From Hyphomicrobium sp. (lineage in GTDB: Bacteria > Pseudomonadota > Alphaproteobacteria > Rhizobiales > Hyphomicrobiaceae): a DNA stretch of 64,000 bases. Under the pieces are notes generated by a model. It did no database searches and was not told the origin of the DNA. It was given only the letters and a program-made list of their open reading frames with translations. This document shows positions 1-4,943 of this stretch, piece by piece; the first letter of the stretch is position 1; every line of letters starts with the position of its first letter. Location of the stretch: positions 385,264 through 449,263 of the forward strand of contig JALHMJ010000001.1 in assembly GCA_022844105.1 (NCBI GenBank), read 5' to 3'. The position numbers and the translations under genes were made by a program.

Positions 1-1325
1 CCGGCGCGCTTGAGGTGTTCGAGAAAGTCGGTTGCCCATGTGGTCGTGTCGCGACGGGAAATAGTGGCATAGAGAGCAGCGTGGCGGCTTTGCCGTTCAG
101 CGAGTGGCATAGCGAGGGCCTGGGCAAGTGCATCACCCAACTCCTCAACGCAATACGGGTTGACGAGAATGGCTTGTTGTAACTCTTCTGCGGCACCTGC
201 GAACCGGGACAATATCAATACGCCAGGATCTGCTGCGTCCTGTGATGCAATGTACTCCTTGGCTGTGAGGTTCATACCGTCGCGAAGGGGTGTGACAAAC
301 CCCACGGCGGCCGAGCGATAGAGCGCGCGCAAGCGCTTGCGCGGAATGGAGCGGTGAATGTAGTGGACGGGCATCCAGTCAACGTCGCCGTATTCGCCGT
401 TGATCGATCCGGATATGCCCTCCAATTCCTGCCGAATGTCCGCATAGACTTCGACGCTATCGCGCGTTGGCGCCGCGATTTGGGTCAACACGGTTTGCCT
501 GCGAAAATGCGGGTACGCTCGCAAAAGATGTGCAAAACCGCGAAACTTCTGCGGTAGCCCTTTGGTGTAGTCGAGGCGATCAACGCCAAGAACGCGCTTA
601 ATTGTGGTGTTGCGCGGCTGGTGGCCTGCCATGGCGAACGTTTGACTGTCGACGCTGATAGGGAAGCTTCCGACGTGGAACGCCTCTCCTGCGATTGATA
701 GTCGGCCGCTGGGCAGAAGCTCTGCGCCAGTGGCCGCGCGCAGGCATGCGAGCATATTGCCGACGTCGTTGGTCGTCTGACACCCTACGAGATCGTACGC
801 GGCCAGCGAAGATGCCAGCTCGCGGAACTCCGGAATTGCTAGAAATGCTTCGGGGGGCGGCATCGGAATATGAAGAAAGAAACCAATCTGATTTTCGATG
901 CCTTGCGCGCGCAGCAGCCGCCCGAGGATCATGAAATGGTAGTCGTGAACCCAGATCTGATCCCCGGGTCGTACGAGGCTGGCAATGACTACTGCAAGTC
1001 TGATGTTGTAAGCGGCGTATGAACCGTAAAAGTTCCGGTCAAACCGCGCCAAGTCGAGCCGATTGTGAAAGACAGGCCAGAGCACGGAATTCGCGTATCC
1101 AAGATAAGCTCCTTCATGCTCTTCAGCCGTCATGTCGAGTGTCACCGCAGAAAAGCGGCCGTGATGAATATCGAATTCTGATCTGTCGGAGATGTTTCCC
1201 GACCAGCCAATCCACAAGCCGGCGCGCTGACATAGAAGTTCGCGTACCGCGACGGCAAGTCCGCCACTCGTCTCCGTGGCGTCCGGCAGTGCGACACGAT
1301 TGGAAACGCAGATCAGGCGCGACAC
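1..1325 (-). CDS. otsA: Trehalose-6-phosphate synthase OtsA, 3' end cut by the window edge
   Basis: Glycosyltransferase family 20 enzyme that joins UDP-glucose and glucose-6-phosphate to make trehalose-6-phosphate, a cytoplasmic step in making a stress protectant. About 441 codons are visible and the frame is open to base 1, so the C-terminus lies outside the window. Family motifs can be read in order: an N-terminal SNR, an SGGLAVAV segment, VHDYH, RLDYTKGL and DGMNLTAKEY. The start is a GTG at 1325, preceded by AAGGA nine bases upstream, and it puts SRLICVSNR at the N-terminus as in OtsA proteins. A perfect EcfG-type promoter lies 33 bases upstream (1358-1382), so induction by the general stress response is likely. 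Family assignment is firm. Confidence 0.96.
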   Translation of the reverse strand, partial: MSRLICVSNRVALPDATETSGGLAVAVRELLCQRAGLWIGWSGNISDRSEFDIHHGRFSAVTLDMTAEEHEGAYLGYANSVLWPVFHNRLDLARFDRNFYGSYAAYNIRLAVVIASLVRPGDQIWVHDYHFMILGRLLRAQGIENQIGFFLHIPMPPPEAFLAIPEFRELASSLAAYDLVGCQTTNDVGNMLACLRAATGAELLPSGRLSIAGEAFHVGSFPISVDSQTFAMAGHQPRNTTIKRVLGVDRLDYTKGLPQKFRGFAHLLRAYPHFRRQTVLTQIAAPTRDSVEVYADIRQELEGISGSINGEYGDVDWMPVHYIHRSIPRKRLRALYRSAAVGFVTPLRDGMNLTAKEYIASQDAADPGVLILSRFAGAAEELQQAILVNPYCVEELGDALAQALAMPLAERQSRHAALYATISRRDTTTWATDFLEHLKRA

Positions 1326-1695
1326 AGCATTGATTCCTTTGGTCGATCACTCAGCACAACGCACGTGCGGCATGAGCGTTCCTTGGAGCCCGGCTTTGCT
1401 GGGAAATCCCTAGCGCGGCAACGCCTCAGTGGTGAAAATCAGCGGCGCCATTCACTGTTGACCGCACCGGAGGTCAAAGCCTCGCCAAGATTGTCTTGCT
1501 TGCGGATAGTAATTCCGGCCTGGGTGCCGTGGAAGCCATCGTGAGAGGGCGAAAGACCCCCATCGTTCCAGAACACGTCAAGGGCGTCATTAGTCAGAGG
1601 CTGTTCTTTAACTGCTGATGTTTCGAGTTTTTTTCGAAACCGAACGTCCTGCGTCGCGTTCTTCCACCTTATGAGACTATTGGAGGCGCTGCCTG
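1326..1695. other. Intergenic region between divergent otsA and a small membrane-protein gene
   Basis: 370 bases with no supported gene. The left part carries the EcfG-type otsA promoter. Near 1619-1643 a GTTTCG...CGAAAC inverted repeat flanks a T-rich loop (6-bp stem). I see no GGAAC-type promoter facing the rightward gene and no recognisable RNA gene. Confidence 0.5.
1358..1382 (-). promoter_or_regulatory. EcfG-type general stress promoter of otsA
   Basis: Read on the minus strand this is GGAAC, 16 bases, CGTT: the consensus for the alphaproteobacterial general stress sigma factor EcfG (GGAAC-N16/17-CGTT). The -10 element ends 33 bases before the otsA GTG. OtsA is a classic member of this regulon in other alphaproteobacteria. 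The match is read directly; activity is inferred. Confidence 0.8.
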
Positions 1696-1923
1696 ATGAT
1701 GCACGATTCCCGACAGGACAAAGAAAAAGTGGCAGCGCGCCAAGGGACGAAGGAGAAAATGAATTTTCGCGTTTTAGCGACGTCTTTGTTTCTCATCGCG
1801 CTCATATTTACAGGACTTTATTTCTTTTTCCTCGCCTCGCCGTCCGGCGAAAACAGCAGCGTGGAAACACCCGCTGGTGCAGGCACATCACAGCCACGCT
1901 CAACGGCCGCGATAGCGCCATAG
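1696..1923 (+). CDS. Small single-span membrane protein, unknown function
   Basis: A 75-residue protein with a charged N-terminus (residues 1-22) and one clear hydrophobic span at about residues 25-46, rich in Leu, Ile and Phe. A short Ser/Thr/Pro/Ala-rich tail follows. The start at 1696 is preceded by GGAGG (1682-1686) at nine bases. An internal ATG at 1759 has a purine-rich AAGGAG only three bases upstream and would leave a 54-residue protein that still holds the span. I do not recognise a family. It sits between otsA and a KGG stress protein, so an envelope role in stress is possible but unproven. Confidence 0.5.
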   Translation: MMHDSRQDKEKVAARQGTKEKMNFRVLATSLFLIALIFTGLYFFFLASPSGENSSVETPAGAGTSQPRSTAAIAP

Positions 1924-1979
1924 TGTGTCGTTTGTAAGCTGCCATACCTGCCAATCTCGCGGCGATTTCACAGCGCGTG

Positions 1980-2294
1980 CTATTGGTCATCGCCGCCGCT
2001 CGCCGGTCTGGCGATCGGCGCTCGATTCAGGCTGCCGCGACCGCCTTCCTGTCCGCCCTTGCGACCGGCCTCGGCCGCAAGTTCACGATCTTTGGAAAAG
2101 CTACGATCTTCAGCCGCGACGCTCTGTCCGCCTTTGCGCCCAGCCTGCACGGCCAGGTCGTGATTGAGAGAAAAGCTGCGCTTTTCGGCTGGTACGCTCT
2201 CGCCACCTTTGCGCGCTATTTCACGCTGCTTGGTCTCGTCCATTCCGGCAAAGCCCCGCCCGGAAGACCCCGAGCGCTGGTTCTTGTCAGCCAT
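1980..2294 (-). CDS. KGG-repeat general stress protein
   Basis: A 104-residue, very hydrophilic protein with three Arg-Lys-Gly-Gly motifs (about residues 28-31, 53-56 and 78-81). The first two repeats share an RKGG-[EQ]SV core followed by an RSFS segment. This is the pattern of KGG-domain, con-10/GsiB-like stress proteins, small desiccation- and starvation-induced proteins whose exact action is not known. A near-consensus EcfG promoter (GGAAC-N17-GGTT) lies about 60 bases upstream. Its neighbours are also stress genes. Family assignment is good; molecular function is open. Confidence 0.85.
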   Translation of the reverse strand: MADKNQRSGSSGRGFAGMDETKQREIARKGGESVPAEKRSFSLNHDLAVQAGRKGGQSVAAEDRSFSKDRELAAEAGRKGGQEGGRGSLNRAPIARPASGGDDQ

Positions 2295-2353
2295 TTCACA
2301 TCTCCCGCGTTCTTATTTTGCATATGATCCCTGAATTGGATTTCGTGCGATTG

Positions 2354-2379
2354 AACCGGTTGATGCACGGGTTGGTTCC
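2354..2379 (-). promoter_or_regulatory. Near-consensus EcfG-type promoter of the KGG gene
   Basis: On the minus strand: GGAAC, 17 bases, GGTT. The -35 element is perfect and the -10 differs from CGTT at one base. It lies 60 bases upstream of the KGG-protein start, with nothing else in between. Weaker than the other three stress promoters in this region. Confidence 0.5.
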
Positions 2380-2447
2380 CCGCTGTCTGGCAATGAGAAT
2401 CGGCGCAGATCTGACCCGTGTCATGCACGCACTGGAGGTTGGTCAAA

Positions 2448-3785
2448 TCATCGAGCGGTGGTTTGCGTTGGTTGCGCGGTGACGCGCCAGACGGCATTAC
2501 CGACATCATCGGTGACAAGAAGCGCGGCTGACTTATCGAATGCGACGCTAACGGGGCGGCCGAGGGCGTCACCATTCGGGCTGAGAAATCCTGTCAAGAC
2601 GTCGCGCATTTCGCCGTTCGGCTTTCCGTTTTCAAACGGGACGAAAACAACCTTGTAGCCTGAGGGCGGATTGCGGTTCCAGGAACCGTGCTGGGCGATG
2701 AAGGCTCCGTTGCTAAATTCTCGCGGCCAGCTGCCTTGCGCCTGGTTGAAGGCGAGACCCAAAGAGGCCGTGTGTGCGCCGAGAGCATAATCCGGGGTTA
2801 CAGCCTTGGCGATTAGATCGGCCCGCTGTGGCGAAACACGTTCATCGACGTGACTTCCAAAATAACTGTAAGGCCAGCCGTAGAATGCGCCCTGTTTTAC
2901 CTCCGTCAAATAGTCGGGGACGAGATCGGAGCCGATTTCGTCGCGTTCATTGACCACCGTCCAAAGCGCTTTCGTGGTCGGCTCCCACGCCATTCCAACC
3001 GGGTTGCGCAAGCCGGTGGCGAACGGCTGATACGTCTTGGCGGCGATATCGACGGAGAGTATTGCAGCGCGATCCTGCTCCATGTTCAAGCCGTTTTCTC
3101 CAACGTTGCTGTTCGAGCCGACACCTACGTAGAGTGTGCGGCCGTCAGCGCTGGCGATCAGGCTCTTGGTCCAATGGTGATTGAGCGGACCGCCGGGGAG
3201 GTCAACGATCTTCTCCGGCTTTGCGGTTATCTTGTCGGCCCCTTCGACATAGGGAAAGGCAACAATGCTGTCGGCGTTCGCCACGTAAAGCGTCGTGCCG
3301 ACAAGCGCCAATCCGAAGGGCGAGAATAGGCCTTCAATATAGTTGGTTTTGATGTCCGCGGCGCCATCGCCATTCGTGTCGCGTAAGAGGACGACACGAT
3401 TTGGGCTTTCCACGCCGGCGCCCGCACGCCACATCACGAACTGCATCACAAGACCTTTAAGGCCGGTGCTCTGTACTTTCGGCGGCGCATTGCTCTCGGC
3501 CACGAGAACGTCACCGTTAGGCAAGATCAGGATTGATCGCGGATGATTGAGATCGCGGGCAAATGCGGTAGCGGTTAATCCGTTGGCGGGTGACGGGCCC
3601 TTATCCGACGGCCAGCCTCTGGCCGGTGCAATATTTACCGTCGGGATGAGGCCTTCAACGGGTTTTGCAATCGCCGGATTTTTTCCAGTATCCGCCCCTT
3701 TTGGCAATATGCTTTCTTCCCCGCAGCCGGTTAGCGATAGCGCAACGATACCGACACATAAGTTCAGCTTTGTTCGATCCGACAT
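2448..3785 (-). CDS. PQQ-dependent sugar dehydrogenase lipoprotein (sorbosone dehydrogenase family)
   Basis: A 445-residue member of the glucose/sorbosone dehydrogenase beta-propeller family, periplasmic quinoprotein oxidoreductases acting on sugars or aldoses. The N-terminus is a lipoprotein signal with a lipobox ending at Cys21 (LTGC), so membrane anchoring is expected. Family segments include GWPYSYFG near the middle and QHGSWNRNPP, followed by a KVVFVPF strand, towards the C-terminus. The natural substrate cannot be read from sequence. It lies 36 bases downstream of the general-stress oxidase-like gene and probably shares its EcfG promoter. The start at 3785 gives a normal signal peptide. 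Confidence 0.85.
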   Translation of the reverse strand: MSDRTKLNLCVGIVALSLTGCGEESILPKGADTGKNPAIAKPVEGLIPTVNIAPARGWPSDKGPSPANGLTATAFARDLNHPRSILILPNGDVLVAESNAPPKVQSTGLKGLVMQFVMWRAGAGVESPNRVVLLRDTNGDGAADIKTNYIEGLFSPFGLALVGTTLYVANADSIVAFPYVEGADKITAKPEKIVDLPGGPLNHHWTKSLIASADGRTLYVGVGSNSNVGENGLNMEQDRAAILSVDIAAKTYQPFATGLRNPVGMAWEPTTKALWTVVNERDEIGSDLVPDYLTEVKQGAFYGWPYSYFGSHVDERVSPQRADLIAKAVTPDYALGAHTASLGLAFNQAQGSWPREFSNGAFIAQHGSWNRNPPSGYKVVFVPFENGKPNGEMRDVLTGFLSPNGDALGRPVSVAFDKSAALLVTDDVGNAVWRVTAQPTQTTAR

Positions 3786-3821
3786 AATGAAGCTCGCTTG
3801 TCTGTGGTCGATGAAAAGGAC

Positions 3822-4313
3822 TTAAAGGCGGACTTCGCCGTGGTCGCCAAGGTCGGGCTGTTTGCCCGTCACGTTCGCGACCAACATCTGCACGACGGCC
3901 GAGATCGAATTGTCTCCGTCCCAGTATTCGCCGATGAGCGGTTGCAGCACGAGCGCGCAAATGTCCGGTTGCGACGGACCTTGCGGCCAGAACGCTTGGG
4001 CTCCCGGATTCCACAAGTCTTCGATCAGCCGGCGATCTTTTGAAATGGTGGCTCGCACTGAGATCGAGACATAGCGCTTTCCATCGGCAAAGGTCAGCAG
4101 GGCCGTTGGATCGTGTTCGATTGCCCTGACACCCTCGGTCGCTTGTTCAGCGAGAACATAAATTACGCCGTCATTCCTGCGCACCAACGGCGTCATCGGA
4201 CGACCACTCAACCGCCCGTCCTGCCCCCGCGTTACCAGGATTGTGGCGTGAAACTTTTCGACTAGGTTCCACAACTTATCGCGTGCAACGTTTACATCCC
4301 GATCTTCGGCCAA
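3822..4313 (-). CDS. General stress protein, pyridoxamine 5'-phosphate oxidase-like fold (GSP26 type)
   Basis: A 163-residue protein of the general stress protein 26 / PNPOx-like flavin-binding split-barrel family. Visible family features are the early LVTRG strand, the GRPMTP segment, and the YVSISVRA strand followed by WNPGAQAFWPQGPSQPDI, where the family has W..wfP.G..dP. Members bind FMN or FAD in some cases, but a catalytic role is usually unproven. A perfect EcfG promoter (4359-4383) lies 46 bases upstream, and the sugar dehydrogenase gene follows after 36 bases, so the two are probably one stress operon. Confidence 0.85.
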   Translation of the reverse strand: MAEDRDVNVARDKLWNLVEKFHATILVTRGQDGRLSGRPMTPLVRRNDGVIYVLAEQATEGVRAIEHDPTALLTFADGKRYVSISVRATISKDRRLIEDLWNPGAQAFWPQGPSQPDICALVLQPLIGEYWDGDNSISAVVQMLVANVTGKQPDLGDHGEVRL

Positions 4314-4358
4314 TTTTCATATCCTTTGCTCTACCTGCGCTGATTACTGCAGAGCGGC

Positions 4359-4383
4359 AACGCGAACCTGATCGTGCGGTTCC
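4359..4383 (-). promoter_or_regulatory. EcfG-type general stress promoter of the GSP26-like gene
   Basis: Minus strand GGAAC, 16 bases, CGTT: an exact consensus match whose -10 element ends 46 bases upstream of the start at 4313. Together with the matches at 1358 and 4563 it argues for a coordinated stress island. Confidence 0.8.
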
Positions 4384-4562
4384 CAGGTGATTGTCGGGTT
4401 CGCCAATGAGCGGGTACGCACCATGTTGAACCAACGGATGATGAGCTGGTTCAATCCACTTTCAACAACAGAGGAATTGAAAGTGCGGATGAGAGTGACT
4501 GCGTCTGTAGGCGATGCACCGGTGTGCAACGCTGTGGCCGTGGCCGCGGTCCCGGACGAATT

Positions 4563-4587
4563 GGAACGCAACGGCCGTTTCGCCGTT
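4563..4587 (+). promoter_or_regulatory. EcfG-type general stress promoter of the DUF883 gene
   Basis: Plus strand GGAAC, 16 bases, CGTT, an exact consensus. The -10 ends 95 bases before the ATG at 4683, leaving a leader of about 85-90 bases. Confidence 0.75.
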
Positions 4588-4682
4588 GAACACCCACCGA
4601 ACGTGAGTGCATCAGGCGGCCGAGCAGCGGGCGTCGCTTAAGTTCGAGTGATTTGCTGTAAAACATGAGAAGGAGAGTGGGC

Positions 4683-4943
4683 ATGGCTACGGGCAATTAT
4701 GGCAGTACGTCCAGCGATATGAGCGAGCGCGCATCGCAGTTCGGCGACGCCGCCGGACGGCAGATGGACCAAGCTTTCGACAGCGCAGAGACATTAGCCC
4801 GCAATGCCGCGGTGCGGGGGCGGCAGGCGCTGACGGCAGTTGATCGCACGATGCGCGATCAACCGATGCTGACACTCGCAGCTGTTGCCGCGGCTGGTCT
4901 TCTCATCGGAGCGTTGTGGAAAATGGACCGGCGGCGCTGGTAG
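4683..4943 (+). CDS. DUF883/ElaB-like membrane-anchored protein
   Basis: An 86-residue protein with an amphipathic, Ala/Arg/Asp-rich helical body (residues about 10-60). A C-terminal hydrophobic segment of about 18 residues ends in a Lys/Arg/Trp tail, the layout of the DUF883 (ElaB/YqjD) family, some of which bind ribosomes at the membrane in stationary phase. The ATG at 4683 is preceded by AAGGAG at seven bases; an in-frame ATG at 4665 lacks this. It has its own exact EcfG promoter, so it is probably a stress-regulon member. The family call rests on layout more than on strict sequence motifs. Confidence 0.72.
   Translation: MATGNYGSTSSDMSERASQFGDAAGRQMDQAFDSAETLARNAAVRGRQALTAVDRTMRDQPMLTLAAVAAAGLLIGALWKMDRRRW

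What the first reader, a model, noticed from the sequence alone, without database searches (positions are those of the whole stretch)
1323..4943. Compact general-stress island with four EcfG-type promoters
Seen: exact GGAAC-N16-CGTT at 1358-1382, 4359-4383 and 4563-4587, and GGAAC-N17-GGTT at 2354-2379. Each sits 33-95 bases upstream of a gene: otsA, the GSP26-like gene (with the sugar dehydrogenase downstream), the DUF883 gene and the KGG gene. Known: this is the promoter of the alphaproteobacterial PhyR-EcfG system, and OtsA is a common target. Inference: the island gathers trehalose synthesis, a hydrophilic KGG protein, a PQQ sugar dehydrogenase and a membrane-anchored DUF883 protein into one stress unit, giving the poorly known members a likely role.
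Basis: partly seen in the sequence, partly recalled or inferred. Interest (0 to 1): 0.6.

Follow-up and report, generated by a model that had tools for sequence, protein, structure and literature searches.

The report
Stress-response gene island with EcfG promoters
A short stretch of a Hyphomicrobium-like genome carries several genes, including those for the protective sugar trehalose, that each sit behind the same kind of stress-activated promoter; the system is well known, but a probably membrane-anchored sugar-oxidising enzyme that recurs behind it in related bacteria looks like a neglected part of it.

Summary
Three exact GGAAC-N16-CGTT sites and one GGAAC-N17-GGTT site lie at the stated places, 32-95 nt upstream of otsA, GSP26, a DUF883-like gene and KGG. 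The genome has phyR, nepR, ecfG and an HWE kinase at C2:282-286 kb, amid more such sites. Motif counts alone prove nothing (70 against 85 for the reversed control), but position and conservation do: 22/70 sites against 1/30 examined control sites are in promoter position; the GSP26 site is strict in 5/5 genus genomes and the otsA site in 3/3 readable. In the family 23/30 GSP26 loci examined carry a site, control 0/30. The sugar dehydrogenase, a predicted lipoprotein of the PQQ type, often has its own site outside the genus: 25 of 99 distinct alphaproteobacterial upstream regions examined, control 0; 0 of 65 beta/gammaproteobacterial rows. The 'island' is several transcription units, reaches otsB beyond the window, and KGG is accessory (2/6 genus genomes). 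Verdict: a satellite cluster of the known EcfG regulon; the recurring dehydrogenase is the part worth follow-up.

The parts
1358..1382 (-). EcfG-type promoter GGAAC-N16-CGTT of otsA
   Evidence: strict also in G023 and G040, at 33 nt
2..1325 (-). otsA, trehalose-6-phosphate synthase (GTG start; runs about 15 aa past the window start; otsB follows at G000:C1:384426-385217)
   Evidence: PF00982 377 bits; otsB PF02358 88 bits
2354..2379 (-). weaker EcfG-type site GGAAC-N17-GGTT of the KGG gene
   Evidence: G052 has GGAAC-N16-GGTT 60 nt before its KGG gene, with a shared CCGGTTCAA block
1980..2294 (-). KGG-repeat hydrophilic protein (104 aa)
   Evidence: PF10685 70 bits; found in 2 of 6 genus genomes
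4359..4383 (-). EcfG-type promoter GGAAC-N16-CGTT of GSP26-GSDH
   Evidence: strict in 5/5 genus genomes that have the gene
3822..4313 (-). GSP26-like protein (Pyrid_ox_like), TTG start
   Evidence: PF16242 111 bits; start aligned with ATG of relatives
2448..3785 (-). GSDH: predicted lipoprotein of the PQQ-dependent sugar dehydrogenase type, 36 nt after GSP26, probably on the same transcript
   Evidence: PF07995 and PF22807 over cut-off; AF2 model pLDDT 86, best PDB matches AA12 and soluble PQQ dehydrogenases; Cys21 nearly invariant, H204/R260/N261 invariant
4563..4587 (+). EcfG-type promoter GGAAC-N16-CGTT of the DUF883-like gene
   Evidence: each of 4 relatives has a site upstream, but shifted in position, strict only in G052 and GGTT in the other three
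4683..4943 (+). DUF883-like (ElaB/YqjD-type) small protein with a C-terminal hydrophobic segment, 86 aa
   Evidence: DUF883_C in 6/6 aligned members at E up to 1, window protein sub-threshold; 49% identical paralogue beside ecfG, also behind an EcfG-type site

Best explanation
The stretch is a satellite cluster of the alphaproteobacterial general stress response. Under stress an HWE kinase phosphorylates PhyR, PhyR pulls NepR off EcfG, and EcfG-RNA polymerase starts transcription at GGAAC-N16-CGTT promoters in front of otsA(-otsB), GSP26-GSDH and the DUF883-like gene, and probably at the weaker site of KGG. Products: trehalose as protectant, a hydrophilic KGG protein, a GSP26-type protein, a periplasmic lipoprotein that oxidises a sugar with PQQ, and a membrane-anchored DUF883-like protein. 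Shown here: the sites, their position and conservation, and the presence of phyR, nepR, ecfG and a kinase. Inferred: activation by EcfG in vivo (from homologous systems), operon structure and all protein functions.
For: Sites at exact coordinates. phyR, nepR, ecfG present, with the same motif before nepR-ecfG and phyR. Promoter position 22/70 against 1/30 control sites examined of 85. GSP26 site strict in 5/5 genus genomes; otsA 3/3 readable; a site of some form before the DUF883-like gene in 5/5, strict in 2/5. GSP26 loci in the family: 23/30 with a site, 18 strict, control 0/30. GSDH: 25/99 distinct alphaproteobacterial upstream regions examined, control 0/99; 0/65 beta/gamma rows; background 17/1644 300-nt single-strand stretches. 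Published EcfG regulons hold a GSP26 gene (PMC6599016, passages) and a gsp gene (PMC7083833, passages); otsA/otsB are under GSR control in B. diazoefficiens (PMC8092242, passages).
Against: No excess of the motif genome-wide (70 against 85). The KGG site deviates in the -10 and differs in spacing between the two genomes that have the gene. The DUF883 site moves between relatives and is GGTT in three of five. 7 of 30 GSP26 loci and 74 of 99 GSDH upstream regions have no site within 300 nt. No expression data.
Confidence: 0.9

Rival explanations
1. The sites are chance matches; the genes are only neighbours with stress-like names.
For: The motif is not over-represented in the genome (70 against 85 reversed); three within 3.2 kb has probability 0.03-0.12.
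Against: GGAAC and CGTT kept with diverged spacers in 5/5 (GSP26) and 3/3 readable (otsA) genomes; 23/30 GSP26 loci in the family against 0/30 control; promoter position.
Confidence: 0.03
2. The sites belong to another ECF sigma factor with a GGAAC -35, for example the ECF-type gene on C5, rather than EcfG, or are shared.
For: The genome has 13 Sigma70_r4_2 matches, ecfG and phyR among them; GGAAC-type -35 boxes are common to many ECF factors (recalled).
Against: The strict motif lies before nepR-ecfG and phyR but within 1 kb upstream of none of the other 11 loci (compared by hand); the consensus is the published EcfG one (PMC7083833, PMC3892343, passages).
Confidence: 0.06
3. The genes are EcfG targets, but their adjacency has no functional meaning: independent targets that happen to be neighbours. 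(Compatible with the best explanation; it concerns only the word 'island'.)
For: In G019 (same family) GSP26 and GSDH lie on different contigs, each behind its own strict site; KGG was found in only two genus genomes; in G052 otsA is not in the 18-kb piece fetched.
Against: DUF883-GSP26-GSDH order is kept in 5/5 genus genomes and otsA beside it in 4/5, and GSP26-GSDH look like one transcription unit.
Confidence: 0.35

Closest known systems
EcfG (sigma-T, RpoE2) general stress regulon of Alphaproteobacteria, e.g. Sphingomonas melonis, Sphingopyxis granuli, Bradyrhizobium diazoefficiens
   Same: Same promoter consensus, same PhyR-NepR-EcfG regulators, shared targets for trehalose synthesis and GSP26
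   Different: Here several targets are packed in one stretch of about 6 kb away from the ecfG locus, and a PQQ-type sugar dehydrogenase lipoprotein is joined to GSP26
Soluble PQQ sugar dehydrogenases / CAZy AA12 (TrAA12, CcPDH, E. coli Asd)
   Same: Predicted fold best matches 6h7t/6i1q/6i1t/6jt5, TM 0.66-0.67 by query; equivalents of His153 and Arg220/Asx221 of TrAA12 are H204, R260, N261, invariant in 20/20
   Different: Only about 20% identical to the solved structures; predicted lipoprotein; substrate unknown
ElaB/YqjD/DUF883 membrane-anchored stress proteins
   Same: Short protein with a C-terminal glycine-containing hydrophobic segment; DUF883_C match in 6/6 aligned members at E up to 1
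   Different: Window protein scores below the Pfam cut-off (16.7 against 27)

Membership tests
EcfG-dependent promoters / general stress regulon | GGAAC -35, 16-17 nt spacer, CGTT -10 | tested here: met
   Met for the otsA, GSP26 and DUF883-like sites; the KGG site has GGTT, see its own row
EcfG-dependent promoters / general stress regulon | ecfG, nepR, phyR in the genome | tested here: met
   NepR 48 bits; EcfG and NepR domains; PhyR with PhyR_sigma2, PhyR_sigma-like and Response_reg over cut-off
EcfG-dependent promoters / general stress regulon | sites in promoter position and kept in relatives | tested here: met
   for the DUF883-like gene a site is kept but not its position or exact -10
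EcfG-dependent promoters / general stress regulon | transcription lost in ecfG or phyR mutant; start sites match | not testable with these tools
   needs RNA work
KGG promoter as an EcfG promoter | consensus -10 and spacing | tested here: inconclusive
   N17-GGTT in G000, N16-GGTT in G052; -10 flexibility is reported for S. granuli (PMC7083833, passages)
PQQ-dependent soluble sugar dehydrogenase (AA12/sGDH type) | fold and catalytic His and Arg/Asx | tested here: met
   residues from PMC6881810, passages; mapped by hand on the alignment
PQQ-dependent soluble sugar dehydrogenase (AA12/sGDH type) | host makes PQQ | tested here: inconclusive
   PqqB 380 bits, over cut-off, on C20; other pqq genes not sought
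PQQ-dependent soluble sugar dehydrogenase (AA12/sGDH type) | PQQ binding and sugar oxidation | not testable with these tools
   needs purified protein
DUF883 (ElaB/YqjD) | Pfam DUF883_C above gathering score | tested here: not met
   16.7 against 27 bits for the window protein; 6/6 aligned members match at E up to 1; therefore called DUF883-like only
GSP26 (Pyrid_ox_like) | PF16242 above cut-off | tested here: met
   110.9 against 28.8 bits
KGG / Con-10 type | PF10685 repeats above cut-off | tested here: met
   70.1 against 20.4 bits, two stretches
OtsA trehalose-6-phosphate synthase | TIGR02400 equivalog cut-off | tested here: inconclusive
   490 against 565 bits with the C-terminus cut by the window end; PF00982 met; otsB adjacent

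The most novel reading that the evidence does not exclude
A lipoprotein PQQ sugar dehydrogenase is a recurrent, overlooked output of the alphaproteobacterial general stress response: in many lineages it has its own EcfG promoter, and in this genus it was joined to GSP26 in one operon. Stressed cells would then oxidise a sugar in the periplasm with PQQ, feeding electrons to respiration without uptake, while the cytoplasm fills with trehalose.
Probability: 0.35. Interest if true: 0.5.

Novelty: new member of a known kind. Interest (0 to 1): 0.35.

Why it matters
It extends a known regulon to a Hyphomicrobium-like lineage by sequence evidence and gives several small or poorly known proteins a likely condition of expression. 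The comparative part turns one gene, the PQQ-type sugar dehydrogenase, into a testable general-stress output across Alphaproteobacteria.

Tried and rejected
Motif count as evidence: rejected, since the genome holds no excess and clustering alone reaches only p 0.03-0.12. Another ECF factor as the user of the sites: disfavoured. KGG as a core island member: rejected, found in 2 of 6 genus genomes. A site in front of the conserved small gene orf75 (1696-1923): none by exact pattern; a single-mismatch match at 1636 was not pursued. GSDH neighbours in six alphaproteobacterial loci: no shared stress neighbours seen by eye from ORF starts; not scanned against families. Plasmid search with GSP26: 148 records, all below 60% identity, not used further.

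Claims about print. (EcfG with sorbosone dehydrogenase): 0 papers; 178 papers held three of six terms, 20 listed, none of the 20 with 'sorbosone dehydrogenase'. (PQQ-dependent sugar dehydrogenase with general stress response): 1 paper, on Curtobacterium, listing only; 1 paper, without EcfG, listing only. Term finds in main texts: no sugar dehydrogenase in the passages of PMC6599016 (other dehydrogenases are listed there), and no 'dehydrogenase' in PMC7083833, PMC3892343 and PMC4814048 or 'sugar/glucose dehydrogenase' in PMC6180224. That is no support in print for the dehydrogenase reading; but the full regulon tables of these papers are in supplements that were not read, and the library lacks most subscription papers, so neither novelty nor absence is claimed.

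Rows and limits. Gene calls come from a simple codon scorer of my own, which missed the DUF883-like gene, so that site is not among the 22. Controls are the first 30 of 85. Of the rows listed I examined the 29 best non-self loci and the next 40; lower-ranked rows, less similar to the query, were not examined. The one search set has 34 alphaproteobacterial rows, 4 of them from this genus, where GSDH follows GSP26. Class membership was assigned by me from record titles (L090 uncertain) or from the class-level search. The 65 other rows are mostly Pseudomonas, Acinetobacter and Massilia, so not independent. In one search, 30 of the loci were examined, and the low-identity GSP26 rows may not be orthologues. 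G072, a sixth genus genome, gave no GSP26 match. Sites were not tested against presence of ecfG in the other genomes.
Full report
Observation. Gene models: otsA 2-1325(-, GTG), KGG 1980-2294(-), GSDH 2448-3785(-), GSP26 3822-4313(-, TTG), DUF883-like 4683-4943(+). Gaps from site to start codon are 32 (otsA), 59 (KGG), 45 (GSP26) and 95 nt (DUF883-like); GSDH follows GSP26 after 36 nt. Domain scans support otsA, KGG, GSDH and GSP26 over Pfam cut-offs; the DUF883 label is sub-threshold.

Where it is. The window is C1:385264-449263 of a 3.4-Mb genome in 23 contigs. Three genomes of the same genus have contigs whose lengths equal those of 'Hyphomicrobium sp.' MAG records (262,543, 86,906 and 19,311 bases), so it is a Hyphomicrobium-like alphaproteobacterium. 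otsB lies just left of the window at C1:384426-385217, so the trehalose unit is otsA-otsB.

Regulators. NepR, EcfG and PhyR are adjacent at C2:284484-286184 with an HWE histidine kinase at 282174-284408; PhyR has both sigma-like domains and a receiver domain. C2:285-297 kb holds seven strict sites, before phyR, nepR-ecfG, a DUF883-like gene, CsbD and DUF2383 among others. That DUF883-like protein is 49% identical to the one in the window. The window island is thus a satellite of a larger core stress locus.

Chance. The strict motif occurs 70 times in the genome, the reversed control 85 times: no overall excess. Three places in 3.2 kb arise somewhere with probability 0.12 (N16 and N17 pooled) or 0.03 (N16 only); seven in 11 kb, as in the core locus, in 0 of 20,000 simulations. 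Position is informative: 22 of 70 sites lie outside called genes and 5-200 nt before one, against 1 of 30 control sites examined (of 85) (Fisher p 0.0016).

Conservation. In G052, G023, G040 and G064 (proteins 56-75% identical at this locus) the order DUF883-GSP26-GSDH is kept. The GSP26 promoter is strict GGAAC-N16-CGTT in 5/5 with the window genome, at 30-45 nt. The otsA promoter is strict at 32-33 nt in the 3 genomes where it can be read (masked in G064; otsA not in the piece fetched from G052). The DUF883-like gene has a site in each genome, but at shifting positions, strict in G000 and G052 and with GGTT in the other three. KGG was found only in G000 and G052, with GGTT in both. In the wider family 23 of 30 GSP26 loci have a site within 300 nt, 18 strict, control 0. 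A GSP26 gene is in the EcfG regulon of S. melonis (PMC6599016) and a gsp gene in that of S. granuli (PMC7083833); otsA and otsB are GSR-controlled in B. diazoefficiens (PMC8092242) (passages seen).

The sugar dehydrogenase. Its N-terminus has a lipobox-like LTGC (Cys21 nearly invariant; lipobox rule recalled). An AlphaFold model (pLDDT 86) best matches AA12 and soluble PQQ sugar dehydrogenases, with moderate TM-scores of 0.66-0.67 by query length. Equivalents of His153 and Arg220/Asx221 of TrAA12 (PMC6881810, passages), read by hand from the alignment, are H204, R260 and N261, invariant in 20/20 homologues. PqqB is in the genome. Outside this genus the gene often has its own site: 10/34, 8/29 and 9/40 rows, together 25 of 99 distinct upstream regions, 15 strict, all but one 2-76 nt from the inferred start; reversed control 0; 0 of 65 beta/gammaproteobacterial rows. 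Of 1644 300-nt single-strand stretches of 12 alphaproteobacterial loci, 17 hold the loose pattern. In G019 GSP26 and GSDH lie on separate contigs, each with its own strict site: two independent targets there, apparently one transcription unit here. Against: 74 of 99 regions have no site directly upstream, and I did not test whether those genes lie in operons or whether each genome has ecfG.

Reading. The finding is right in observation and, in the main, in interpretation. It is an ordinary kind of thing, a group of EcfG targets, in an unstudied organism. 'One stress unit' should read 'several EcfG-type units side by side'. The part worth follow-up is the recurrence of the PQQ-type lipoprotein behind EcfG-type sites, for which a limited search of an open-licence library gave no report and term finds in the main texts of five papers on EcfG or ECF regulons gave no mention.

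Noticed in passing
window 1696-1923 (+): Small predicted membrane protein (75 aa) between otsA and KGG, opposite strand, conserved at 44-65% in 3 of the 4 genus relatives examined, with no exact EcfG site; no Pfam or NCBIfam hit.
   Followed up: partly
G000 C2:282-298 kb (L038, L039): Core general-stress locus: HWE kinase, PhyR, EcfG, NepR, DUF883-like paralogue, CsbD, DUF2383, DUF892, with the densest run of strict EcfG-type sites among the 70 in the genome.
   Followed up: yes
L074:9004-9345 (-): In a relative, an extra small gene (113 aa) with a signal-peptide-like start lies between GSP26 and the DUF883-like gene, divergent from GSP26 and behind its own GGAAC-N16-GGTT site; tblastn finds no significant match in the window (best E 0.44).
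   Followed up: partly
L076:8515-9833: In Azospirillum what looks by eye like an ECF sigma and anti-sigma gene pair sits directly upstream of the GSDH gene, which has its own EcfG-type site.
   Followed up: no
G000 C2:259622-259649: A palindromic stretch matches the strict EcfG motif on both strands, between a gene that looks patatin-like and one that looks like an ABC-transporter ATPase (both by eye).
   Followed up: no
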